A stretch of DNA of 64,000 nt from Leifsonia sp. PS1209. Lineage in GTDB: Bacteria; Actinomycetota; Actinomycetes; Actinomycetales; Microbacteriaceae. Below are positions 1 through 20,437 of the stretch, one piece after another (within the stretch, counting starts at the first letter, position 1; each line of letters begins with the position of its first letter). The DNA lies in the NCBI RefSeq assembly GCF_012317045.1, contig NZ_CP051154.1:3782001-3846000 (forward strand). Reading direction: 5' to 3'. The position numbers and the translations under genes are program-made. The notes beneath the pieces were generated by a model. It was not told the DNA's origin, made no database searches, and was given only the letters and a program-made list of their open reading frames with translations.

Positions 1-941
1 GAGGGGGTCAGGCTGAGCACGCGGGCGACGCTGAGGACTCCGGACCATCCGGCCTCGCCGGTCTGCCGGTCGTCGCGGCCCTCCTGCATCCAGCCCATGA
101 TGATGCGGCGGCCGCTCTCGTCGCGGAAGCTCTGAGGTGCATAGAAGTGGCGCAGCCCGAGGTCGAGGGGGCGCACCTCCTGCGGAGTGAACACGCCGTC
201 GGCGTAGCTGCCGGTGAAGTAGATGGGATAGTGGGTGTCGCCTTCGTCCCAGACGGACACGACGAGGATGTGGGTGCCGTCGAGCTCGAACAGGTCGACG
301 CACTCCCACATGGTGCCGGTCCACAGCGGCTCGGCGTCGGAGGCGCTGCCGACCAGGATCGGGCCGCGATAGGTCCAGCTGCGCAGATCCGGCGATTCGT
401 AGAGCAGCGCCGCACCACCGATGCCGCGGAATCCGCTGCCGATCAGCTGGAACCACGTGTCTCCCTTCCGCCACACGCAGTGATCCCGGAAGGCGGTGAC
501 GTCGGTCCCGACAGGGGGGCCGGAGAGCACCGGATTGGCCGGGTCCTTCGTCCACGTGTCGAGGGTGCTGTCACCGATGGCGAGGCAGGGCAGCTGGACG
601 TCGCCGGCGTGACCGGAGTAGACGATGGTCGGCACGCCGTCGTCGTCGACCAGGACGCCGGACCAGCATCCGTCACGGTCGGGGCCGTCGGCGTCGGGGG
701 TCAGCGCGATCGGCCGGTCCTGCCAGTTCACCAAGTCTGTGCTGGTGGCGTGCCCCCACAGGATGTTCGCGTGGCGAGGCGCATCGGGATTGAACTGATA
801 GAAGAGGTGGTAGGTGCCGTCCCACTGGGAGAGCCCGTTCGGGTCGTTCAGCCAGCCGGTCGGCGCGCCGAAGTGGAAGCGCGGTCGGGCGGGGTCGTTG
901 TCGTATGCGAGGCGGCGGGGCACGAGGGCGCTGTCGGTCAC
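1..941 (-). CDS. GH32 beta-fructofuranosidase/levanase-type enzyme, 3' end outside window
   Basis: A glycoside hydrolase family 32 enzyme, expected to split beta-linked fructose from sucrose, inulin or levan oligosaccharides. From the GTG at 941 the protein reads WLNDPNG at residues 30-36, so Asp33 is the expected nucleophile, and WEC at 212-214 gives the expected acid/base Glu213. The transition-state motif, usually RDP, reads FRDH at 151-154, an unusual His for Pro. There is no signal peptide, so it should act in the cytoplasm on imported sugar. About 313 codons are present; the family usually has 450-520, so the C-terminal beta-sandwich lies beyond position 1. The GTG overlaps the stop of the upstream ATPase gene (GTGA), which argues for translational coupling and fixes the start. 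It is the last visible gene of the fructan operon. Confidence 0.92.
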   Translation of the reverse strand, partial: MTDSALVPRRLAYDNDPARPRFHFGAPTGWLNDPNGLSQWDGTYHLFYQFNPDAPRHANILWGHATSTDLVNWQDRPIALTPDADGPDRDGCWSGVLVDDDGVPTIVYSGHAGDVQLPCLAIGDSTLDTWTKDPANPVLSGPPVGTDVTAFRDHCVWRKGDTWFQLIGSGFRGIGGAALLYESPDLRSWTYRGPILVGSASDAEPLWTGTMWECVDLFELDGTHILVVSVWDEGDTHYPIYFTGSYADGVFTPQEVRPLDLGLRHFYAPQSFRDESGRRIIMGWMQEGRDDRQTGEAGWSGVLSVARVLSLTP

Positions 942-2764
942 GTGGTTGCTCCTGAGGTGGTCTGGGTGGCCGGAAGGTCGCTGGTGGCAACCCAGTGGTC
1001 GGCGCTGATTCGGGTGCGGTCGAGGTCGGGGCTGGTCTTCACGGCCTTCACCCACGCCGTGGGCGTGCGGTTGGCGATGAGCTCAGCGATGGTCGCGCGC
1101 GTCTGCGCGCGCTCGTCCTTCTCGTACCGGGTGGTGCGTTCGGGGTCGGGGGCCGCGGAGACCAGAAGCTGGGTGTACGGGTGGATGGGGTTGTCCATCA
1201 CGACGCCGCTCGCGCCTCCCTCGACGAAGGATCCGCGCAGCATGACGATCGTGGTGTCGGCGATGAAGCGGGCCGATGCGAGGTCGTGGGTGATGTAGAG
1301 GATGGAGATGCCGCGCTCGTCGCGGAGCTTCTTCATCAGCTGCAGCACCCCCATCCGCACGGAGACATCGAGCATCGAGGTGGGCTCGTCGGCAAGGATC
1401 ACCTGCGGTTCCGCGGCCAGGGCACGGGCGAGCGAGACGCGCTGTCGCTGGCCACCGGAGAGTTCGTGCGGGTAGCGGTCGAGGAACGCGGGATCCAGTT
1501 CGACGGAGGTCATCAGGTCGGCCAGTACGGCGTCCATGTCCTTGCGCGGCTTCCGTCCGGAGTGGATCAGGACGGCCCTCTCCAGGAAGTGGCGGATGCG
1601 GTGGGAGGGGTTGAGGGAGCCGAAAGGGTCCTGGAACACCATCTGGACCGCGCCGCGGTAGCGGCGGGATGCGCGCTTGGGCTCGGACTGCAGGATGTCG
1701 GTCCCGTCGAGCAGTATCGAGCCGGCACTCGGCGATTCCAGCCGTGCCAGCATTCGGGCGACTGTGCTCTTGCCGCTGCCCGATTCACCGACGAGGGCGA
1801 GGATCTCTCCCGTATGGAGGTCGAAGTTGACGTCGTTCACGGCGACGTTCTCGCTGCGCGAGAACAGGCCGCCCTGGTGGAAGCTCTTGGAGAGCCCACG
1901 CACCGAGATCACGACATCGCGATCGTCTCCGCTCTCTGGCCGCCGCGCCGGATTGTGCTCGGCGGTGCCGCGGCTGACGGGAGGGAAGGCGGCGATGAGT
2001 TGCTGCGTGTACGGGTGCTGCGGGTCGCGGTACACCGTCCGCGATGGGCCGATCTCCAACAGTCGGCCTGTGCGCATCACGCCCAGGTTCTTGGTGACTT
2101 CGACCATGAGGGAGAGGTCATGCGTGATGAACAGGATGGCGAATCCGAGCTTCGCCTGGAGATCCTGGATCTCCTGGATGATCTCCTGCTGGACCACGAC
2201 ATCGAGCGCGGTCGTTGGCTCGTCCATGATCAGCAGCGCAGGGTTGAGCGCCAGTGCGGTGGCGATGACGGCACGCTGCCTCATGCCGCCGGAGAGCTGG
2301 TGCGGGTATGCACTGATCCGGCTCTGGTCGATCCCGACCAGCGTCAGCAGCTCGCGGGCTTTTGCTTTGGCCTGGCTGCGGGAGAGGTCGGTGTGCGTGG
2401 TGAACACATCGACGATCTGGTCGCCGATGGTCATGACCGGGTTGAGAGCATTCATGGCGCTCTGGAACACCATCGACACACTCTTCCAGCGGAAGTTGCG
2501 CAGATTCTCACCGGTCAGCGTGGACACGTCGGTGCCCTCGAACAGGATGCGGCCGGAGGTGACCCGGCCTCCTGCGAGCAGCCCGAGGATGGCGTTGGCG
2601 ATGGTGGACTTGCCGCTGCCGGACTCCCCAGCGAGGCCGAAGGTCTCACCGCGTCCGATGGTGAACGAGACGTCGTCGACAGCGAGGAATTGGCCGTCGT
2701 CGGTGTCGTAGGCGATGGAGAGGTTCTGGACGTCGAGGATGACGCCGTCGTGTTGGGTGGTCAT
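938..2764 (-). CDS. ABC transporter, fused double ATPase (DppD-DppF type)
   Basis: Cytoplasmic ATPase of a dipeptide/oligopeptide-type ABC importer in which the two ATPase subunits are fused into one 608-residue chain. Both halves have a Walker A GESGSGKST (first at about 46-54) and an ABC signature (LSGGMRQR in the first, LSGGQRQR in the second). Walker B stretches end in DEP. This importer class also carries oligosaccharides in many bacteria, and its place among GH32 and GH172 genes supports a sugar cargo. The ATG at 2764 overlaps the stop of the upstream permease gene as ATGA. A longer frame reaches 2887, but that part would lie inside the permease gene, so the overlap start is preferred. 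Confidence 0.93.
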   Translation of the reverse strand: MTTQHDGVILDVQNLSIAYDTDDGQFLAVDDVSFTIGRGETFGLAGESGSGKSTIANAILGLLAGGRVTSGRILFEGTDVSTLTGENLRNFRWKSVSMVFQSAMNALNPVMTIGDQIVDVFTTHTDLSRSQAKAKARELLTLVGIDQSRISAYPHQLSGGMRQRAVIATALALNPALLIMDEPTTALDVVVQQEIIQEIQDLQAKLGFAILFITHDLSLMVEVTKNLGVMRTGRLLEIGPSRTVYRDPQHPYTQQLIAAFPPVSRGTAEHNPARRPESGDDRDVVISVRGLSKSFHQGGLFSRSENVAVNDVNFDLHTGEILALVGESGSGKSTVARMLARLESPSAGSILLDGTDILQSEPKRASRRYRGAVQMVFQDPFGSLNPSHRIRHFLERAVLIHSGRKPRKDMDAVLADLMTSVELDPAFLDRYPHELSGGQRQRVSLARALAAEPQVILADEPTSMLDVSVRMGVLQLMKKLRDERGISILYITHDLASARFIADTTIVMLRGSFVEGGASGVVMDNPIHPYTQLLVSAAPDPERTTRYEKDERAQTRATIAELIANRTPTAWVKAVKTSPDLDRTRISADHWVATSDLPATQTTSGATT

Positions 2765-3705
2765 GCCTTCTTCGCCTTCTTGTGTCGCGCGAGGCGGGGG
2801 TTGGTGATCTGGTCGACGGCGTAGTTCATCATCGCCAGCGCGAACGCCACGAGGGCGATGCAGGTACCGGCCGGGACGAAGGTCCACCAGGCGCCGGTGA
2901 TGAGAGCGCCTTCGTTGTTCGCCCAGTAGAGGTCGGTGCCCCAGCTGACGGAGGCGAGGTCGCCGAGCCCGAGGAACTCGAGGCCTGCCTGGGCGCCGAT
3001 GCCGAAGATGACGCAGGCGAGGAAGGTGCTCATCACCACGGAGGCCATGTTGGGGAGGATCTCTCGGAACATGACGTAGCCGGGTCGTTCGCCGGTGACG
3101 ATGGCGGCGTCGATGAAGTCCTTACCGCGGAGGGATAAGGCCTGGGACCGGATGACGCGGGCGGAGCCTGCCCAGCCGGTGACGACCAAGACCAGGACGA
3201 TCGTCCCGGGGCCGGGAGGGAGGAACGCGGCGAGGATGATCAGGAGAGGCAGGCCGGGGATCAGCAGGAAGATGTTGGTGACCACCGAGAGGACGTCGTC
3301 GACGGCCTTGCCGAAGTAGGCAGAAGCGAGACCGACGATCAGGCCGACCAGGGTCGCCACGAGTCCGACTGCGAATCCGATCGCCAGGGAGCTGCGAGAT
3401 CCCCACAAGGTCAGTGCCAGGACGTCTTCGCCTTTGGCCGTGGTCCCGAGCAGGTACTGGGGTGACGGCGGGTTGGACCCGCTCGCGACAGGGTTGGTCG
3501 GATCGCCGGGGAAGAGCACCGGTGCGAGCAGGGCGAGGAGGACGAAGATCAGGATGACGACGGCGCCGAAGATCGCCTTTTTGTCCCGCAGGAGCCGGTG
3601 CACCAGGCTGCCGCGACGACGCTGGGCCGCCGGGGCGTCCCGGCTGGTCTCGGACTCCGAGATCTCCTCGTCGATGAGGGGTTGGAGCTGGTCAGGGATG
3701 GTCAT
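2761..3705 (-). CDS. ABC transporter permease, DppC type
   Basis: Inner-membrane permease of the same importer, 314 residues. A cytoplasmic N-terminal tail of about 45 residues is followed by a first membrane segment (about 46-70), the periplasm-facing loop typical of DppC/OppC, then five further segments. The EAA loop that docks on the ATPase is visible around DAAIVTGERPGYVMFREILPN (quoted span broken: key residues are the G in TGERPG and the LPN end). It starts four bases after the stop of the DppB-like gene, with a GAGGTGAG ribosome site inside the end of that gene, and its own stop overlaps the ATPase start. Confidence 0.92.
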   Translation of the reverse strand: MTIPDQLQPLIDEEISESETSRDAPAAQRRRGSLVHRLLRDKKAIFGAVVILIFVLLALLAPVLFPGDPTNPVASGSNPPSPQYLLGTTAKGEDVLALTLWGSRSSLAIGFAVGLVATLVGLIVGLASAYFGKAVDDVLSVVTNIFLLIPGLPLLIILAAFLPPGPGTIVLVLVVTGWAGSARVIRSQALSLRGKDFIDAAIVTGERPGYVMFREILPNMASVVMSTFLACVIFGIGAQAGLEFLGLGDLASVSWGTDLYWANNEGALITGAWWTFVPAGTCIALVAFALAMMNYAVDQITNPRLARHKKAKKA

Positions 3706-3709
3706 GATC

Positions 3710-4687
3710 TCACCTCACTCGCACGCGCGGGTCGAGCCGGACGTACACGATGTCGACTAGGAAGTTGGCCACGAGGACGGCGGCCGTGATGCTGAGGAAG
3801 ATGCCTTGCATGAGCGGGTAGTCCAGCGCCTGGACGGCGGTGAGCAGCTGGTAGCCGATGCCGGGGTAGGCGAAGACGACCTCGGTGAGAAGGGCGCCGC
3901 CGACGACGAAGCCGATCGACATGCCGAAGGAGGTGACCGAGGGGAGCATCGCGTTGCGGGCCGCGTACCGGAACATGATCCGGCCTTCCTTGAGGCCCTT
4001 GGCACGGGCCATGGTGATGTAGTCCTCGGCGGCGGTCGCGATCATGGTGTTGCGCATGCCGAGCATCCACCCGCCGATGGTGACGATGACGATGGTCGCC
4101 GCCGGCAGCACGAGATGGTAGAGGACATCTCCGATGAAGTCCCACGAGAAGCTGGGGGTGGTGCCGAGGGTGAACGCCTGCCCGATCGGGAACCAGCCGA
4201 GGGCTGCGCCGAAGATGTAGAGCGCCGCCATGGCGACGAAGAAGTACGGGAACGAGCCGACGAAGACCAGGATCGGCGGCAGCAGCGAGTCGAGGGCGCC
4301 ACCGCGTCGCCACGCGGCGAACACGCCGAGCAGGTTGCCGAGGACCACCGCGATGATCAGCGCTGTGCCGCCCAGGAGGATGGTCCAGCCGATCTGCGAT
4401 CCGATGACGGTGCTCACCGGGGTGGGGAACTTGGAGATCGAGATGCCCAGGTTGCCGGTGAAGACGTCGCCGATGTAGCGGAAGTACTGCTGCCAGACCG
4501 GTGTGTTGTCGAGGCCGAACAGGTGCCGGTAGCCGGCGACTTGGGAGTCGTCGAGGGTGCCCTTCATGGAGGAGAGCATCCTGCCGACCGGGTCGCCCGG
4601 CATCAGTCGGGGCAACAGGAAGTTCAGCGTCAGAGACGCCCAGAAGGCGATCAGGTAGTAGCCCAATCGGCGGAGCACGAAGATCAT
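3710..4687 (-). CDS. ABC transporter permease, DppB type
   Basis: Partner inner-membrane permease, 325 residues from the ATG at 4687. The N-terminal segment (MIFVLRRLGYYLIAFWASL) followed by a large extracytoplasmic loop is typical of DppB/OppB. The EAA loop is recognisable near ARAKGLKEGRIMFRYAARN, with conserved G and the downstream LP. The frame is open up to 4753, but the ATG at 4687 overlaps the stop of the GH172 gene (ATGA), which fits the arrangement of the whole operon. It forms the translocation channel with the DppC-like product. Confidence 0.92.
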   Translation of the reverse strand: MIFVLRRLGYYLIAFWASLTLNFLLPRLMPGDPVGRMLSSMKGTLDDSQVAGYRHLFGLDNTPVWQQYFRYIGDVFTGNLGISISKFPTPVSTVIGSQIGWTILLGGTALIIAVVLGNLLGVFAAWRRGGALDSLLPPILVFVGSFPYFFVAMAALYIFGAALGWFPIGQAFTLGTTPSFSWDFIGDVLYHLVLPAATIVIVTIGGWMLGMRNTMIATAAEDYITMARAKGLKEGRIMFRYAARNAMLPSVTSFGMSIGFVVGGALLTEVVFAYPGIGYQLLTAVQALDYPLMQGIFLSITAAVLVANFLVDIVYVRLDPRVRVR

Positions 4688-5790
4688 CGCGGCCTCCTCA
4701 GTTCTCTCGAGGCGATGGGGGTGCGGTCGGTGGCGAGCGGCGTCTGATACCAATAGGCGACGGCCGCGACGTCGTCGGAGCGCTCGACGATGTCCGGGCC
4801 GACCTGGCCGATCTGCTGGACGGTCACACGGAGGTTCTCGCTGAACAGGATCGGGTCCTGCACATGCCAGCGGTACATCCCGTGAACGGGCGCCATCGCG
4901 GTGGAGTAGACCGCCTGCTGCGAGGTGTCGTTGGTCGAATAGGTGGGGTAGCCGCAGTACGGAGCCGAGAATGTCAGGACCTCGGGCTCCGTCTCGGAGG
5001 AGAGCCGGTCCTGGAACGCCCAGGCGCCGCCGAAGTAGTCCTCGGTGCCGGTGCCACAGATGGTCGGGTACTCAGCGTCTCCGTCGATGAAGAACTTCAC
5101 CTCGCCCTCGCCGTACCAGTACCGCTCGAGGGCGACGATGTTCAGATAGGTGCCGAGGAAGGCGCCGCGGCCGTGGACGGTGTCGAGGATGGTGAAGTCC
5201 TCAGCGATCGTGGTGGGGTTCTCGCGCCGCCAGGTGGCGTGGAAGCGCAGGTCGGCGACCGTTTCGGGGTCCGGGCTGCTGAGGTAGTCGATCTGGTAGA
5301 ACAGGCCGCCCACATCCGCCGGGTGCTGGTTCTCGATCGTGATCCTGGCGCCATCGCGGAAGGGCATGGTGAAGTACGCGTTCATGCCGCCGGTCGGTGC
5401 GACGACGACCAGGTCGGACGTGACCAGGGCGCGCTCGCCGTTGCCGTTGCAGAAGAAGTCGCCGAGCGGGACTTCGACGGAGGGGGTCTCCGATCCGTCC
5501 CAGTACATCCGCAGCACGAGGTCCCGGAGGACGAATCCGACGGCCTCTGTGTGGGTGGCGACGGTCATCCAGATGTGGCGGATGGTGCCTGCTCCCTCGA
5601 TGTTCGCGAGCTCGGTGGTCTCCCCGGCGGGAAGGGTGATGCACGGACGTCCTTTGCGACCGGGACCAAGCGGGGAGGATGTCTGCCCACCGGCGCCACG
5701 TGCACCGGTGGGGTTCTCGGCGGTGATCGACGCGGACTGCTCGCCACGCTTGATCCGCTCCTGGATGTCATTGACCCAGTCGTTGTTCAT
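4684..5790 (-). CDS. GH172 (DUF2961) glycosidase, probable alpha-fructofuranosidase or difructose-anhydride enzyme
   Basis: A 368-residue protein with the DUF2961 fold motifs. GH172, founded on DUF2961 proteins, includes the difructose dianhydride I synthase/hydrolase (alpha-fructofuranosidase) of Bifidobacterium and exo-D-arabinofuranosidases. The two catalytic Glu regions are visible: GEGE at 227-230 before KFFIDGD, and GTGTEDYFGGAW from 246. By alignment from memory Glu228 and Glu250 would be the catalytic pair. There is no signal peptide. Its position between a GH32-like gene (ATGA overlap at 5787-5790) and the importer makes a fructose-containing substrate more likely than arabinan. That specificity is inference. 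The start at 5790 is set by the overlap; the frame is open further upstream. Confidence 0.85.
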   Translation of the reverse strand: MNNDWVNDIQERIKRGEQSASITAENPTGARGAGGQTSSPLGPGRKGRPCITLPAGETTELANIEGAGTIRHIWMTVATHTEAVGFVLRDLVLRMYWDGSETPSVEVPLGDFFCNGNGERALVTSDLVVVAPTGGMNAYFTMPFRDGARITIENQHPADVGGLFYQIDYLSSPDPETVADLRFHATWRRENPTTIAEDFTILDTVHGRGAFLGTYLNIVALERYWYGEGEVKFFIDGDAEYPTICGTGTEDYFGGAWAFQDRLSSETEPEVLTFSAPYCGYPTYSTNDTSQQAVYSTAMAPVHGMYRWHVQDPILFSENLRVTVQQIGQVGPDIVERSDDVAAVAYWYQTPLATDRTPIASRELRRPR

Positions 5791-7190
5791 CGCTGGACCT
5801 CCTCGTCCTGCTGGATGACGGTCAGCTCCGCGTCGGAGACGGCCACCTCGCCTTCGGTGGCGAAGACACCGAACTCGGTGCCGGTGCGGTCGTAGCCACG
5901 GAGCGTGATCGCCTGCTCGTCGTTGATGTAGATGACGTAGAGCTCGCCCTGCGTCTCGATGCGCAGCTGCACCTCCGAGCCGCCGGTGTATGGGCGGATG
6001 TCGTATGGGCGATCGGCGCCGAACCGGTCGAGGCGGTCGACCAGGAGTCGGGAGAGCGGCGGTTCGAAGGTGACGGAGTAGCCGTGGTTTCGTTCCGGTG
6101 TAGTGCGCAACTCGATGCCGAAGGCCTTCGTCTCGGGCTCGGCGGTGAGGGTGATGTCGATCATCCCAGCGTGAGGCAGCCGGGCGATCGTGCTGGTCGC
6201 GAACCCGTTCGCCGAACCGACCTGCTTCGCAGGCATCGGGGTCCGTGACTGCGCCCGGCTCTCGAGCACGGCGCGGCTGATCTCTGGCTGCTTCACGAGG
6301 AGCCGTCCGTCGTCCTGCTGGACGAGCTCGTGGACGACGAGGTTGCCGCCCCAGAGCCACCCGGCGCCGTCTTGACCGGCGGTGTTATTGGTCGCCCACC
6401 CGACGAGGTAGCGGTTGGCTCCGTCGGAGATCGTCTTGGCCGCGTAGAGCCCGAGCCCATCGAGCTCGTCGTCGGCGGGGCTGATCCACGGGCCGTCGAG
6501 TGTGCGGCTCATGCGGTAGCGGGTGACGGTGCGGTCGGTGAGTGTGGAGTAGACGAGGTACCACCAGTCGCCCATGCGGAACAGGTCGGGGCACTCGTGC
6601 ATGGAGTAGATGCCCGGAGCCCAGAACGGCTCAGGGCTGATGGTCCATTCGTCGGTGGTCTCGGATTCTGCGAGCACAGTGGCGCCGCGGCGCAGGACAG
6701 GCCCGGTGAGGGTCTGACCGGCGACCAGCATCTGGTAGCGCTGCCGTTCGGTGTTGAAGAACACGAACGGGTCGCGCCATTCGTCAGCGTTGTAGTGGTC
6801 CTTATCGGACAGCAACGCGAACTCCGGGTCCTTGGTCCACGTGATCAGGTCGGTGCTGCGGGCGCGAAGAACCGTCTGGTGCCGTCCAGCGCTCGTGCCG
6901 TCCCACTTTCGGAACCCGGTGTAGTAGGCGTGGAATTCGTCGCCGACGCGGATGACGCTGCCCGTGGCGGCGGAGAAGTCGGGGTCACTGACGCCGCCCT
7001 TCGGGATGGCGACCCCGTGGTCGACGAAGTCGACGAAGTCGGTGGTGGAGATGTGGCACCAGTCCGTTTCTACCCGGTCGTGGGTGTCGTCGGCGAAGCG
7101 CTTGAGGAAGAAGACGTGGTACACGCCGTCCCAGTAGAAGGGGATGGTGTCTCCGAGTCGGGCGCCGACGGGCTTGTAGAAGCGGGTCAT
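5787..7190 (-). CDS. GH32-family glycoside hydrolase, divergent subgroup
   Basis: A 467-residue cytoplasmic protein with a five-bladed-propeller GH32 signature of an uncommon kind. LGDTIPFYWDGVYH near the N terminus carries Asp14 where the usual WMNDPNG nucleophile sits. WRDP at 138-141 is the transition-state motif, and HECPDLF has Glu199 as the expected acid/base. The last 150 residues look like the GH32 C-terminal beta-sandwich. The replaced NDPNG motif suggests a substrate other than plain sucrose, perhaps a fructose disaccharide or an anhydride product passed on by the GH172 neighbour. It is the first enzyme gene after the binding-protein gene, separated by 82 bases holding a hairpin. 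Confidence 0.85.
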   Translation of the reverse strand: MTRFYKPVGARLGDTIPFYWDGVYHVFFLKRFADDTHDRVETDWCHISTTDFVDFVDHGVAIPKGGVSDPDFSAATGSVIRVGDEFHAYYTGFRKWDGTSAGRHQTVLRARSTDLITWTKDPEFALLSDKDHYNADEWRDPFVFFNTERQRYQMLVAGQTLTGPVLRRGATVLAESETTDEWTISPEPFWAPGIYSMHECPDLFRMGDWWYLVYSTLTDRTVTRYRMSRTLDGPWISPADDELDGLGLYAAKTISDGANRYLVGWATNNTAGQDGAGWLWGGNLVVHELVQQDDGRLLVKQPEISRAVLESRAQSRTPMPAKQVGSANGFATSTIARLPHAGMIDITLTAEPETKAFGIELRTTPERNHGYSVTFEPPLSRLLVDRLDRFGADRPYDIRPYTGGSEVQLRIETQGELYVIYINDEQAITLRGYDRTGTEFGVFATEGEVAVSDAELTVIQQDEEVQR

Positions 7191-7227
7191 CGTTGTCTCT
7201 CTGTTTCGATATGGGCGAAGGGGGAGG

Positions 7228-7263
7228 GTGCCGCGGCCGGGGGGGGGGGGCCGACCGCGGCAC
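7228..7263 (-). terminator. hairpin between binding-protein gene and enzyme genes (attenuator-like)
   Basis: A perfect 9-bp inverted repeat, GTGCCGCGG at 7228-7236 and CCGCGGCAC at 7255-7263, encloses an 18-base loop that holds a run of twelve G on the plus strand (twelve C in the mRNA). There is no T tract after it on the minus strand. Hairpins after the binding-protein gene are common in ABC operons and give excess binding protein over the membrane parts; that role is inferred here. Confidence 0.6.
7239..7250. repeat. homopolymer run of 12 G
   Basis: Twelve consecutive G on the plus strand inside the loop of the intergenic hairpin. It lies outside coding sequence, so length change would not shift a frame but could alter the hairpin loop. 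Long G runs are also prone to sequencing length error. Confidence 0.9.
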
Positions 7264-7272
7264 TCCGGGTGT

Positions 7273-8940
7273 TCAGCCGCGCGGCTTCACGGTGGTCAGC
7301 ACGAGAACGGTGCTCGACTCACCCGGGGAGAGCGTCGCGTACGGGTTCTTCTCGCTGGGCCAGCCGGTGAAGTTCTTGCTGTTGTAGATCCCCCAGTCGG
7401 GGCCCGGGAACAGTGGAACGGTCGGGGCCAGCTGGTTGTAGAGGGCCTGCAGCTTGTTCATGATCGAGTGCTGCTCGCTCTCCGAGGTGGCGGCCGCGAA
7501 CTGGTTGAGCAGCTCGTCGGCTTCCTTGCTGCAGTAGCGCTGGAAGTTCTGCGAGGTCTGCTCGCCGACCGGCTTGACCGTCTGGCAGGACATGGCGCTG
7601 CGGTAGTACTCGAACGGCGTCACGCCCGCCTGGCTCCAGGCGATGTTGCCGGTGAACGTACCGCCGAACAGTGCGGTGTTGATCTGCGACCAGTCCTTGA
7701 CGTTCAGCTTGGCGTCCACGCCGATCTGCTTCAGGTTGCGGGAGATGACCTGGGCGACCGAGATCCAGTCGGTCGAGGCCGAACCGACGCCGATGGTGAA
7801 GCTGATCGGCTTGCCTGCCTTGTCGGTGCGGATGCCGTTCGAGCCCTTGGGGTAGCCGGAGTCGTCGAGCAGCTTGTTGGCGGCAGCGACGTCCTTCTTG
7901 GTCCAGGTGCAGTTGTCGGCGATGCTTGCATCGCGCCAGGACTTGTATGCGTCGCTGAGGCCCGTGCAGTCGGCGGGGTGGGCGTAACCGCTCATGCCGG
8001 TCTTGACGACCTCGTTGCGGTCGATGGCCATACTGATCGCCTTGCGCACGTTGGCATCGTCGAACGGAGCCACGGTGGTGTTCAGGGTGAGGGCGATGGT
8101 TGAGCCGACCGGCGGGAACCAGTAGCCGCGGTACTTGGGGTCCTTGTCCACGTATGTCTTCTGGACGTCCTGGATGTAGCCAAGGCCCCAGTCGAGCTGC
8201 CCGTTGATGCCGGCGATGTTCGCCGCGTCGTTGCCCGAGTATGCGATCAGCCGGATGCCGGAGTACTTCGCCTTGTCCTTCTGCCAGTAGTGCGGGTTGC
8301 GCAGCAGGTCGAACGACTGTGCCGAGAAGTTCGTCACCTGGGTGAAGGGGCCGGAGCCGACCGGGTCCGGGTTCTGCCAGGTCGACGGGTTCTTCTGCGA
8401 TTCCCAGACGTGCTTGGGAACGATCACCTGCTGCCCGAGCTCGTAGAGCCCCGGCGTGTACTTCCGGTTCAGAGTGAAGACGACCGTCGCGGGGTCCTTG
8501 GCCTGAACATCCGACACGTAGTCGAACGTGGTCGGGCCGAGCACCGTGCGCGCCAGCCCGAAGGTGTAGACGACATCCTCCGCGGTGAGCTTCTGGCCGT
8601 CCGACCAGGTCGCGTCCGGCTGGAGGTGGAAGGTCAGGCTGAGTCCGTCGGAACTCCAGTCGTACGACTTCGCCAGCCACGGCACGACGTTGCCCTTGGC
8701 CAGGTTGGTGACGATCATCGACTCGTAGACCGCGTGTGTGGTCATGCCGAGGGCGGTGGGCGAGAACGGATTGAAGTTGCGGACGAACGACGCGTTGCCG
8801 ATCGCCGCGATCCGGAGGGTCTGAGAGGACCCCTTGTTCGCCGTGGACGAGCACGCGGCGAGTGCGCCGGAGACTCCGACGGCTAGGGCCACGCCGAGAA
8901 CTAACGCGCGCCAGAAGCGGCGCGTGCGAGTGGGTTTCAT
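7273..8940 (-). CDS. ABC transporter family-5 solute-binding lipoprotein
   Basis: Extracellular substrate-binding lipoprotein, 555 residues, that captures the oligomer and hands it to the permeases encoded downstream. The N terminus has Arg-rich start, hydrophobic core and the lipobox LAAC (Cys at about 30), so it should be lipid-anchored to the outer face of the membrane. The mature part reads like the SBP_bac_5 family: an early NPFSP segment, LTAEDVVYTF and the domain-closing FTGWPSEKNPYA region. Family-5 proteins bind peptides, nickel or oligosaccharides; operon context points to a sugar. ATG at 8940 is preceded by an AAAGG site. The half-site CTAACGCG at 8901-8908, inside its first codons, resembles one arm of the LacI operators upstream. 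Confidence 0.92.
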   Translation of the reverse strand: MKPTRTRRFWRALVLGVALAVGVSGALAACSSTANKGSSQTLRIAAIGNASFVRNFNPFSPTALGMTTHAVYESMIVTNLAKGNVVPWLAKSYDWSSDGLSLTFHLQPDATWSDGQKLTAEDVVYTFGLARTVLGPTTFDYVSDVQAKDPATVVFTLNRKYTPGLYELGQQVIVPKHVWESQKNPSTWQNPDPVGSGPFTQVTNFSAQSFDLLRNPHYWQKDKAKYSGIRLIAYSGNDAANIAGINGQLDWGLGYIQDVQKTYVDKDPKYRGYWFPPVGSTIALTLNTTVAPFDDANVRKAISMAIDRNEVVKTGMSGYAHPADCTGLSDAYKSWRDASIADNCTWTKKDVAAANKLLDDSGYPKGSNGIRTDKAGKPISFTIGVGSASTDWISVAQVISRNLKQIGVDAKLNVKDWSQINTALFGGTFTGNIAWSQAGVTPFEYYRSAMSCQTVKPVGEQTSQNFQRYCSKEADELLNQFAAATSESEQHSIMNKLQALYNQLAPTVPLFPGPDWGIYNSKNFTGWPSEKNPYATLSPGESSTVLVLTTVKPRG

Positions 8941-8980
8941 TGCTTGCCTTTCGTCTTTGAAGGGGGGATGTGTTGCGGTG

Positions 8981-9979
8981 TTAGATGGACTCTCGGATCA
9001 CGGTCGGGCAGTTGACCACGACGGTTTCGCGAGGGCCTTCCTCGCCGCGCTCCATCTGCATGAGGAGCTCGGCGCCGATCCGACCCATCTCCCGGAACGG
9101 GAGGGAGATGGTGGTCAGCGCGGGGCGAAGGAAGCTAGAGATGAGTTCTTGGTTGTCGAAGCCGACGACCCCGATGTCTTCGGGGATGCGCAGCCCGGCC
9201 TCGCGAATGGCGTCGTAGGCGCCCATCGCGAGGCGGTCGTTCGCGCAGAAGATCCCGTCGGGGATGAGCGGCTGCTGCAGTAGGTGCTTAGCAGCCCGGT
9301 AGCCGTCGGTCGCGTCGGCGCCGCCGGTGACGATCAGTGCGGGGTCGACGGCGAGGCCGGCGTCGTTCAGCGCTCGTTCGAAGCCGACGCGTCGGCCCTC
9401 CGCCGCCGTGAGGCCCTCGGGAAGATTGATCATGGCGATCCTCTTCCGGCCACTGTCGGCAAGCAGAGACCCGGCTTCGTATCCGCCGGCGACCTCGTCG
9501 GGGAGGACGGAGGGATAGTGCCCGTCGATGTCCGAGCAGTGCACCAGCGCCATGGGGACGCCGCTCAGCACACTGGGGACCTTGATCGTGCGGTTCCACG
9601 TCGTCGCGAAGAGGACTCCGCCCACGCGGTGCTCGAGCATCATCTCGACGGAACGCCGGTCGGGATGATCCGGCGTGTTCGTCCCGGCGATGATCAGGGA
9701 CTTGCCGTGCCGCCAGAAGGTCTCCTGGGCACCGGCGATCAAGTCGCCGGCGAACGGGGTGGTGACGATGTCCGTGACCAGTCCGTAGAGACCGGTCGTC
9801 TGCGAGGCCAGGGCGCGAGCGCCGGCGTTCGGTCGGTAGCCGAGCTCCGCCGCCTTTTCGACGACGCGGCGGCGAGTCTCCTCGGACACCTGGTTCTCGT
9901 TGTTCAACGCAAAGGAGACAGCGGATCGCGAAACACCCAACGCTCGAGCGAGGTCGCTCATGGTCACGGGGCGCGTCAT
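8981..9979 (-). CDS. LacI-family transcriptional repressor of the fructan operon
   Basis: A 332-residue LacI-type regulator: N-terminal helix-turn-helix (residues about 7-27, MSDLARALGVSRSAVSFALN) and hinge helix ending at ARALASQTTG, then the periplasmic-binding-protein-like sensor domain (from about 62) with a typical NDRLAMGAYDAIREAGL segment near the C terminus. It is the first gene of the operon, 40 bases before the binding-protein gene, and two LacI-type palindromes lie just upstream, so autoregulation together with control of the sugar genes is likely. The inducer would be a fructose-containing mono- or oligosaccharide; that is inference. Confidence 0.92.
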   Translation of the reverse strand: MTRPVTMSDLARALGVSRSAVSFALNNENQVSEETRRRVVEKAAELGYRPNAGARALASQTTGLYGLVTDIVTTPFAGDLIAGAQETFWRHGKSLIIAGTNTPDHPDRRSVEMMLEHRVGGVLFATTWNRTIKVPSVLSGVPMALVHCSDIDGHYPSVLPDEVAGGYEAGSLLADSGRKRIAMINLPEGLTAAEGRRVGFERALNDAGLAVDPALIVTGGADATDGYRAAKHLLQQPLIPDGIFCANDRLAMGAYDAIREAGLRIPEDIGVVGFDNQELISSFLRPALTTISLPFREMGRIGAELLMQMERGEEGPRETVVVNCPTVIRESI

Positions 9980-10000: not shown

Positions 10001-10014
10001 CTAACCCGCGTTAG
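10001..10014 (-). promoter_or_regulatory. LacI-type operator 1
   Basis: CTAACCCGCGTTAG, a near-perfect palindrome with the CG centre usual for LacI-family sites. It lies 22 bases before the lacI-type start codon, downstream of the promoter, where bound repressor would block elongation or initiation. Confidence 0.75.
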
Positions 10015-10031: not shown

Positions 10032-10049
10032 CACTAACACGCGTTAGTG
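10032..10049 (-). promoter_or_regulatory. LacI-type operator 2 over the promoter
   Basis: CACTAACACGCGTTAGTG, the same core CTAACnCGCGTTAG as operator 1 with longer arms. Its centre is 33 bases (about three helical turns) from that of operator 1. On the minus strand TTGACC (10055-10060) followed after 17 bases by TTAGTG would be a promoter, and the operator covers its spacer and -10. The TTGACC overlaps the stop codon of the next upstream gene. Confidence 0.75.
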
Positions 10050-18841: not shown

Positions 18842-19618
18842 TTAGTTCTCCTGGGGAGGGGCTGCGGGGTTGCTATGGGTTAGCCCAGTGACGCGCATCC
18901 GGTTGCGGCCGCTGCTGATGCCGACCACCACGATGATGGCGACGAACAGCGCCAGACTCACCTGGCCGGTGCCGAGGCCCAGCCCGTGGCGCGCGTGCGA
19001 CACCGCCAGCCAGTCCGAGATGGATGCGCCGAACGGCCTGGTCAGTACATACGACGCCCAGAACGCGGCCGTGGCGCCGAGCCCCCACCAGCGGTACCCG
19101 GCGCCCGGCAGTGCGAACAGCACCAGGAAGACGACCCCGGAGGCGAGGTAGCCGAGCCCGAAGGTGACCGCGGTGAGGTCGCCGACCGCGGTGCCGAGCG
19201 CGAACGTGGTGAGCACGGCGCACCAGTAGAAGAACTCCCGCGGCCGCGTGTTGATGCTGTGCACCGAGAGGGTCCGCTGCGTCGCGTACCAGAGCGCGAA
19301 CACCGCGGCGAGGACCACCAGGAACACCGTCGTCGACACCAGGTAGGGCACCCCGAACTGCACGTGGATGACGTCGGCGACCATGGTCCCGAACACCGCC
19401 ACCATCAGCACCGCGAACCAGTACACCCACGAGATGTACCTGCGCACCGCGAACTGCAGCACCAGGGCGACCCCCAGCACGACGGCGGCCCCGGCGACCG
19501 CCACGGGAGGGTCGATCCGGTGCACGAGGAAATCGGAGGTCGTCTCGCCCATCGCGGTGGTCAGCACTTTGGCCACCCAGAACAGGGCGGTCACTTCGGG
19601 GACTTTGTTGCGCAGCAC
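18842..19618 (-). CDS. COG4705-type multi-span membrane protein
   Basis: A 258-residue integral membrane protein with about eight segments. It has an internal duplication: the segment PEVTALFWVAKVLTTAMGET is echoed by FFYWCAVLTTFALGTAVGD. This pattern is that of the COG4705 membrane-anchored family, whose function is not established. GTG at 19618 is the start; the upstream hexamer CAGAGT six bases before it may be a weak leaderless -10. It lies 49 bases ahead of the ferric-reductase gene's upstream region and could share its control. Confidence 0.8.
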   Translation of the reverse strand: MLRNKVPEVTALFWVAKVLTTAMGETTSDFLVHRIDPPVAVAGAAVVLGVALVLQFAVRRYISWVYWFAVLMVAVFGTMVADVIHVQFGVPYLVSTTVFLVVLAAVFALWYATQRTLSVHSINTRPREFFYWCAVLTTFALGTAVGDLTAVTFGLGYLASGVVFLVLFALPGAGYRWWGLGATAAFWASYVLTRPFGASISDWLAVSHARHGLGLGTGQVSLALFVAIIVVVGISSGRNRMRVTGLTHSNPAAPPQEN

Positions 19619-19693
19619 CAGGACACTCTGGCGCTGCGGTTCCCAGAAATCGCTAAGAGGCGGGGATCACACGCGTCGCGGCGCCACTCCCGA

Positions 19694-20437
19694 TCAATGG
19701 ATGCTCTGCACCTGCACGTGCGGCGTCCCCCGCGTCACCGCCCACACGGTTCCCGCGCCGGCCGCGCGCAGCGGACCGGACCCGACAGACAGCACCGTGT
19801 GCTCGTCGATGGCGACGCCGCCGTCGACGAGTTGCGCATCCACTGCCGCGATCAGCCGCGAGAGGTTGCCCCACTGCACCGCGTGCACGTCGACGGTCAC
19901 GTCCACGAGCCCGAGTCCGGGGACGACGGTGACCTCGTCCAGCTCCTCGGAGCCGTCCTCCGGGGAGACCTCGACGCCACCGATGCGCCAGCCTCCGATG
20001 AGGGCGCGATCCGGCGCGATCATCGCGCCCGCGGAGAAGCCGAGGTACGGCATCCCGTCGACGACGGCCGCCTGGATGGTCTCGGCCGAGGGGAGCAGGG
20101 CGTCGAGGTAGGCGGGCGTGAGGCCTCCGCCGACCACCAGGGCGTCGATGCCCTCCAGCGCGCTCGGGTCGACCAGCTGGCCCTCCGCGAAGGCGCCGAT
20201 CACCGGCTCGATGCTCACGCCACCGGCCGCTTCCGACGCCGCTGCGGTCGTCAGCGCCTCCGCGAGCCGGGCGGCGTGGTCGGCCTCGCCACCCTCGCGG
20301 ACCGTGATCACGGCGATTCTGGCCGTCGCATCCGGTTCGCGTCTCGCGGCACGCTGCGACGCCTCGATCACGAAGCCTGTGTACACGTCGATGTCGTAGC
20401 GCGGGTCATTGCCGCCGCCGACCAAGTGGATGCCCAT
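19694..20437 (-). CDS. peptidase S51/cyanophycinase-like protein
   Basis: A 247-residue class I glutamine-amidotransferase-like fold. GFSAGAM (about residue 134-140) carries the expected nucleophile Ser as in peptidase E and cyanophycinase, with VVGGGLTPAYLDAL before it and HAVQWGN after it holding a possible His. It may cleave Asp- or beta-Asp-linked dipeptides, but the protein is shorter than cyanophycinase. TAGCGT lies six bases before the ATG at 20437 with no ribosome site, so the transcript is probably leaderless. Confidence 0.8.
   Translation of the reverse strand: MGIHLVGGGNDPRYDIDVYTGFVIEASQRAARREPDATARIAVITVREGGEADHAARLAEALTTAAASEAAGGVSIEPVIGAFAEGQLVDPSALEGIDALVVGGGLTPAYLDALLPSAETIQAAVVDGMPYLGFSAGAMIAPDRALIGGWRIGGVEVSPEDGSEELDEVTVVPGLGLVDVTVDVHAVQWGNLSRLIAAVDAQLVDGGVAIDEHTVLSVGSGPLRAAGAGTVWAVTRGTPHVQVQSIH

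What the first reader, a model, noticed from the sequence alone, without database searches (positions are those of the whole stretch)
1..9979. A fructan or difructose-anhydride operon pairing two GH32 enzymes with a GH172 enzyme
GH172 includes a difructose dianhydride I synthase/hydrolase and GH32 includes beta-fructosidases. Both are here as cytoplasmic enzymes in one LacI-controlled operon with a family-5 ABC importer. One GH32 lacks the usual NDPNG nucleophile motif. A pathway that imports an intact difructose anhydride or fructan dimer, opens it with GH172 and splits it with GH32 would fit. Substrate is inference.
Basis: partly seen in the sequence, partly recalled or inferred. Interest (0 to 1): 0.75.

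Follow-up and report, generated by a model that had tools for sequence, protein, structure and literature searches.

The report
Operon for eating fructose-pair sugars
An actinobacterium carries one tightly packed gene cluster with an importer, three sugar-cutting enzymes and a sugar kinase that together would likely take up small sugars made of two joined fructoses and break them into fructose; a cluster of this kind is already published, but the key enzyme here sits in a separate, untested branch of its family.

Summary
Window 1-9979 holds lacI, a family-5 ABC importer, two GH32 genes and one GH172 gene on one strand, most junctions overlapping. The operon runs past the window's left edge: the second GH32 is completed there, followed by an aldo-keto reductase and a PfkB kinase nearest to solved fructokinases. 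The 'missing nucleophile motif' is no loss: that GH32 is of the endo-levanase BT1760 type and keeps all three catalytic acids. The GH172 is not close to the difructose dianhydride I enzyme. Its nearest solved relative is the D-arabinofuranosidase ExoMA1, but the residue published as ExoMA1's fructose-blocking Asn is Ala here. In the compared loci Ala, Ser, Gly or Cys marks a large branch, mostly with an Arg two residues before the active-site Trp; Asn marks ExoMA1-like genes, beside D-arabinan genes in 6 of 8 genomes examined. Both GH32 types flank GH172 in 5 of 5 loci of the window's clade. Import of a small fructose dimer with alpha and beta bonds, cut by GH172 and GH32, is the best reading; the substrate is unproven, and the dianhydride-I +1-site residues are absent. 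The Bifidobacterium dentium operon is published precedent: a new variant of a known kind.

The parts
10001..10014 (.). Near-palindromic operator-like site CTAACCCGCGTTAG, 22 bp upstream of lacI
   Evidence: two sites in 64 kb, each matched on both strands; 0 of 100 shuffles gave 4 matches (the pattern was taken from this stretch). CTAACGCGCGTTAG lies upstream of lacI in L131 and L008; none found in L003 or L210. LacI binding is inferred.
10034..10047 (.). Second operator-like site CTAACACGCGTTAG
8981..9979 (-). LacI-family regulator, first gene of the operon
   Evidence: LacI HTH 50.5 bits, Peripla_BP_3 122 bits; sugar ligand not assigned
7273..8940 (-). SBP_bac_5 substrate-binding protein of the ABC importer (lipobox-like LAAC by eye)
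   Evidence: PF00496 248.7 bits
5787..7190 (-). GH32-A, BT1760-type; triad Asp14/Asp140/Glu199; no signal peptide seen by eye
4684..5790 (-). GH172 (DUF2961); Glu228 acid/base, Glu250 nucleophile, Ala258 gatekeeper, Arg223 two before Trp225
3710..4687 (-). ABC permease B
   Evidence: BPD_transp_1 140.1 bits; ATGA overlap with GH172
2761..3705 (-). ABC permease C
   Evidence: BPD_transp_1 75.6 bits, OppC_N
938..2764 (-). Fused two-domain ABC ATPase (OppD/OppF type)
   Evidence: ATGA overlap with permease C
1..941 (-). GH32-B, canonical NDPNG beta-fructosidase, cut by the window edge; continues to genome 3781466 and is followed by an aldo-keto reductase (L002:8429-9454) and PfkB kinase (L002:7473-8432)
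   Evidence: (Frischella beta-fructofuranosidase 7vco 215.4 bits); GTGA overlap with the ATPase

Best explanation
This operon, whose genes and catalytic residues are read directly from the sequence, likely imports a small fructose dimer that holds one alpha- and one beta-fructofuranosyl bond (such as a difructose dianhydride) and would cut it inside the cell to free fructose. Proposed steps: (1) the family-5 ABC importer takes up the intact dimer (inferred); (2) GH172 opens the alpha-D-fructofuranosyl bond by a retaining mechanism with Glu228 as acid/base and Glu250 as nucleophile (residues shown, reaction inferred from the family); (3) the two GH32 enzymes, probably cytoplasmic, cut the remaining beta bond, the BT1760-type one possibly for 2,6-bonds and the canonical one for 2,1-bonds (inferred from nearest solved relatives); (4) PfkB phosphorylates fructose (inferred from nearest solved relatives); (5) LacI represses from two operator-like sites until a sugar ligand is present (inferred). 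The GH172 belongs to a branch apart from both characterised activities, with Ala/Ser/Gly/Cys at the position where ExoMA1 has its fructose-blocking Asn, and in nearly all rows an Arg two residues before the active-site Trp.
Confidence: 0.6

Rival explanations
1. An ordinary operon for short linear fructans (levan- or inulin-type oligosaccharides, sucrose): the GH32 pair does the main work and GH172 only clears side products or reducing-end forms.
For: GH32-A resembles an endo-levanase; GH32-B resembles ordinary beta-fructofuranosidases and scores 269.9 bits to the ScrB subfamily model, under its 356.4 cut-off.
Against: In the sample of 398 family genomes, close GH32-A orthologues occur only beside this GH172 (3 of 3), which an accessory role would not require; linear oligosaccharides would need GH32 alone.
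Confidence: 0.2
2. GH172 is a D-arabinofuranosidase and the operon handles D-arabinose-containing oligosaccharides.
For: Closest solved relative is ExoMA1; one source names two of the 120 listed relatives (P0018, P0070) D-arabinan exo-arabinofuranosidase.
Against: Ala instead of Asn253; no GH116 match and no GH183 match in the genome, while the same search found GH183 in 7 of the other 11 genomes; two GH32 genes and a PfkB kinase, where the Asn-type locus L142 has GH116 and an FGGY kinase.
Confidence: 0.1
3. The substrate is another alpha-fructofuranosyl or oxidised ketose glycoside, which would explain the aldo-keto reductase.
For: The reductase is closest to 7utf and DepB (422 bits) and has no role in a plain dianhydride pathway.
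Against: No reductase match was displayed in L003, L008, L131 or L132, so it may be an add-on; L210 was not examined for it.
Confidence: 0.1

Closest known systems
Bifidobacterium dentium alphaFFase1 operon (LacI, GH32, GH172 BBDE_2040, ABC transporter; PMC8605356)
   Same: LacI gene, GH172 and GH32 without signal sequence, ABC importer, proposed import and intracellular cleavage (passages, discussion part 1)
   Different: That GH172 is another branch (136 bits to the window's; Gly299, Glu85, Lys147); one GH32 named in that operon instead of two; no PfkB or reductase named in the passages read
ExoMA1, GH172 exo-alpha-D-arabinofuranosidase of Microbacterium arabinogalactanolyticum (8ic8; PMC10509167)
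   Same: Closest solved relative in sequence and predicted fold
   Different: Asn253 gate; no Arg at that place in its orthologue L143; D-arabinan gene context with GH183 and GH116
Blautia and Arthrobacter DFA III pathway (GH91 DFA-IIIase plus GH32 plus ABC importer; PMC11538131)
   Same: Same logic: import, opening to a difructose, GH32 cleavage (passages)
   Different: Opening enzyme is GH91, another family with an inverting, lyase-like reaction
Endo-levanase BT1760 (GH32; PMC6560043)
   Same: Nearest solved relative of GH32-A; same Asp/Asp/Glu triad with the nucleophile in a GD-x-x-P-F segment
   Different: BT1760 is a cell-surface enzyme made with a signal peptide; GH32-A shows none by eye and is 28% identical in the structural alignment

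Membership tests
GH172 (DUF2961) | Pfam PF11175 match above cut-off and double jelly-roll fold | tested here: met
   [not shown]
GH172 (DUF2961) | Two catalytic glutamates | tested here: met
   Both invariant in 229 of 229 aligned sequences
DFA I synthase/hydrolase (alphaFFase1 subgroup) | Small residue at position 299 admitting the fructose C1 group | tested here: met
   Ala258; the published residue is Gly
DFA I synthase/hydrolase (alphaFFase1 subgroup) | +1 subsite Glu85' and Lys147' | tested here: not met
   Gap at Glu85; Ala-Pro then a gap around Lys147; mutation of either left under 5% inulobiose activity in alphaFFase1
DFA I synthase/hydrolase (alphaFFase1 subgroup) | Reversible conversion of inulobiose and DFA I | not testable with these tools
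   Needs enzyme assay
ExoMA1-type D-arabinofuranosidase subgroup | Asn at the gatekeeper position | tested here: not met
   Ala; Asn in 10 of 115 rows, none of them in the window's clade
ExoMA1-type D-arabinofuranosidase subgroup | D-arabinan gene context (GH183, GH116) | tested here: not met
   No GH116 or GH183 match in the genome
GH32, BT1760-type (GH32-A) | GH32 fold with Asp nucleophile, RDP Asp and Glu acid/base | tested here: met
GH32, BT1760-type (GH32-A) | Endo-levanase activity | not testable with these tools
   Needs enzyme assay
PfkB fructokinase | NCBIfam fructokinase model above cut-off | tested here: inconclusive
   Best model is fructokinase (108.5 bits) but below its 450-bit cut-off; nearest solved chains are fructokinases, 185 bits

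The most novel reading that the evidence does not exclude
GH172 holds a third, widespread branch of alpha-D-fructofuranosidases, marked by an Arg two residues before the active-site Trp and Ala/Ser/Gly/Cys at the gate, present in Actinomycetota, Bacillota, Pseudomonadota and Spirochaetota, wired to at least four importer types (family-5 ABC, family-1 ABC, mannose-type PTS, LacY-type symporter), in which the Arg replaces the +1 site of alphaFFase1 and fits other difructose dianhydrides; the window's operon is its two-GH32 form.
Probability: 0.45. Interest if true: 0.6.

Novelty: new variant of a known kind. Interest (0 to 1): 0.42.

Why it matters
The papers read here characterise only a handful of GH172 members, some fructose-active and some D-arabinose-active. 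The comparison offers a cheap two-residue test for sorting unnamed GH172 genes (7942 matches) and for checking names that follow the nearest solved structure. If the branch is fructose-active, many bacteria, gut and bee-associated ones among them, would have an uncharacterised route to cyclic fructose sugars formed in caramel and by inulin-splitting microbes.

Tried and rejected
Rejected: that GH32-A has lost its nucleophile. Rejected as proof: the overall GH32-GH172 neighbourhood statistic, not significant across all small-gate loci. Rejected: naming the GH172 a DFA I synthase/hydrolase.

Led nowhere: several frames scanned gave no Pfam family, probably wrong frames in high-GC DNA. The four plasmid regions read show no gene annotated as GH91; GH91 itself was not searched in the genome, as no GH91 model or sequence was at hand. 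Paper searches on DFA IV hydrolase and alpha-fructofuranosidase listed nothing on this branch. One search used shifted coordinates for the L131 protein and matched only part of it; it is not used. For the Arthrobacter globiformis protein P0149 (52-53% to GH32-A) no published context was found. The GH183 search of the genome alone had no ringing control, so it was repeated with other genomes.

Dropped rows: one search left out GH172 rows under 200 bits or 250 aa, among them L010:15580 (96 bits), which also has both GH32 types near; L132 was left out as a duplicate of L008 but is counted. The tree holds 121 rows, by the quick method without bootstrap, and the place of the ExoMA1 branch relative to the others is not well resolved.

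Full report
What is there. On the minus strand the window holds, in order of transcription, lacI, a family-5 substrate-binding protein, GH32-A, GH172, two ABC permeases, a fused ABC ATPase and the start of GH32-B. GH32-A/GH172, GH172/permease B, permease C/ATPase and ATPase/GH32-B overlap by ATGA or GTGA, the usual sign of one translationally coupled operon. The window ends inside GH32-B; the genome stretch L002 shows its remainder, then an aldo-keto reductase 11 bases on and a PfkB kinase overlapping it by GTGA. Two near-palindromic sites, CTAACCCGCGTTAG and CTAACACGCGTTAG, lie just upstream of lacI: four matches (two sites, both strands) against a shuffle mean of 0.02, with a pattern taken from this very stretch. 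L131 and L008 carry CTAACGCGCGTTAG upstream of lacI; L003 and L210 gave none. That LacI binds there is inferred.

Comparison. I aligned GH172 sequences from 101 loci (80, 20, and L002) with the 120 listed proteins (of 7942 matches). Of the 120, the gate residue is A in 115, G in 3, C in 1, S in 1; of 109 locus rows A 41, S 36, G 15, N 10, C 7 (this includes L132, a duplicate of L008). The ten Asn rows score 252-284 bits to the window. One of them, L143, is an ExoMA1 orthologue at 797.6 bits; L142 and L143 carry GH116. GH183, the endo-D-arabinanase family, lies within about 6 kb of GH172 in 6 of 8 Asn-type genomes examined and in 0 of 4 of the window's clade; G970 has GH183 but over 600 kb away. 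A second mark goes with the gate: an Arg two residues before the active-site Trp (Arg223 here, mostly R-Y/F-W), in 207 of 211 small-gate rows and 0 of 10 Asn rows (the motif count on loci alone, gives 98 of 105 and 0 of 10). The alphaFFase1 orthologue L041:18868-20202 (587.6 bits) has GSW there. The +1-subsite residues Glu85' and Lys147' of alphaFFase1, whose mutants kept pNP-arabinoside activity but under 5% of inulobiose activity (section 8 of PMC8605356), are absent. The window's branch is therefore neither characterised subgroup; that the Arg builds a new +1 site is my inference.

The clade of the window. In the tree of 121 rows, L002, L008 (Rathayibacter sp. Leaf185), L131, L003 (Cellulomonas avistercoris) and L210 form one clade with SH-aLRT 99; all five carry both a GH32-A-type and a canonical GH32 within 4 kb on the same strand (the 4 kb limit was set). 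A separate group of three Bacillota loci (L034, L067, L075; SH-aLRT 94) shows the same trio. In a sample of 398 genomes of the family, GH172 above 620 bits and GH32-A above 590 bits occur in the same three genomes, the next scores being 465.9 and 262.1. Of 28 genus genomes only the window's own has this GH172 form (next 448.1 bits), so it is sporadic, which suggests transfer. L002, L008 and L131 share the family-5 binding protein (880 bits or more); L003's matches at 35 bits only. PfkB was seen in L002, L003 and L008, not in L131; L210 was examined for GH172 and GH32 only.

What speaks against a simple story. Most small-gate GH172 rows have no GH32 within 4 kb: 82 of 105. Their neighbours include mannose-type PTS, LacY-type symporter and family-1 ABC importers. 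The GH32 link across the whole set is not significant (p = 0.21), and the GH183 contrast has p = 0.06. The FGGY kinase cluster, found at five Asn-type loci, also occurs at small-gate locus L134. A small gate residue (Cys) also occurs in 8ah3, by its locus number the D-arabinan-active DgGH172c, so it permits rather than proves fructose. A third GH32-like gene at 65.7 bits lies elsewhere in the genome.

Known or new. A LacI-GH32-GH172-ABC operon with the same proposed logic is published for Bifidobacterium dentium, with growth on DFA I mentioned there as unpublished; a Streptomyces davawensis inulin route via DFA I is also proposed (PMC8605356: abstract, passages, sections 7, 8, 15 and part 1 of 10). 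GH91-based dianhydride clusters are known in Blautia (PMC11538131, passages). A survey of DUF2961 neighbourhoods exists (PMC8812541, passages; its supplement was not read). In paper searches I saw no report of this branch or of the two-GH32 form, in an open-licence library that lacks most subscription journals.

Verdict. Real, intact and coherent; likely a fructose-dimer operon with an untested GH172 branch. Substrate identity stays open until assayed.

Noticed in passing
L002:8429-9454: An aldo-keto reductase closest to 7utf and DepB (8hwn, 422 bits) sits inside the operon between GH32-B and PfkB; its role in fructose use is unexplained.
   Followed up: partly
L061, L063, L065, L068, L070, L074, L080, L081 (Gilliamella): Gilliamella (bee-gut bacteria, recalled) carry a small-gate GH172 beside a LacY-type symporter and a LacI regulator with no GH32 found near; other GH172 hosts in the set include Lactobacillus melliventris and Bifidobacterium aemilianum.
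   Followed up: partly
L229 (NZ_CP070108.1): A conjugative Klebsiella plasmid carries GH172 beside an oligosaccharide MFS transporter and LacI, with insertion sequences on both sides; of 129 plasmid records with a GH172 match 42 are Klebsiella and 50 Sinorhizobium.
   Followed up: no
L230 (NZ_CP018178.1): A Liquorilactobacillus hordei plasmid from water kefir has a mannose-type PTS, GH172, an insertion sequence and then fructokinase scrK.
   Followed up: no
L228 (NC_011881.1 128797-142884): Pseudarthrobacter plasmid pACHL02 has LacI, a sugar ABC importer, GH172 and a carbohydrate kinase, then a second LacI/ABC unit ending in a GH32-A-like gene annotated as family 43.
   Followed up: no
L041: Martelella mediterranea carries both an alphaFFase1 orthologue (18868-20202) and a small-gate GH172 about 8 kb apart, a natural pair for comparing the two branches.
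   Followed up: no
window 7239-7250: A run of twelve G lies in the gap between the SBP5 and GH32-A genes.
   Followed up: no
[not shown]
   Followed up: no
G000:C1:40208-40846 (L226): A third GH32-like gene (65.7 bits to PF00251) lies elsewhere in the genome, directly behind ABC permease genes.
   Followed up: no
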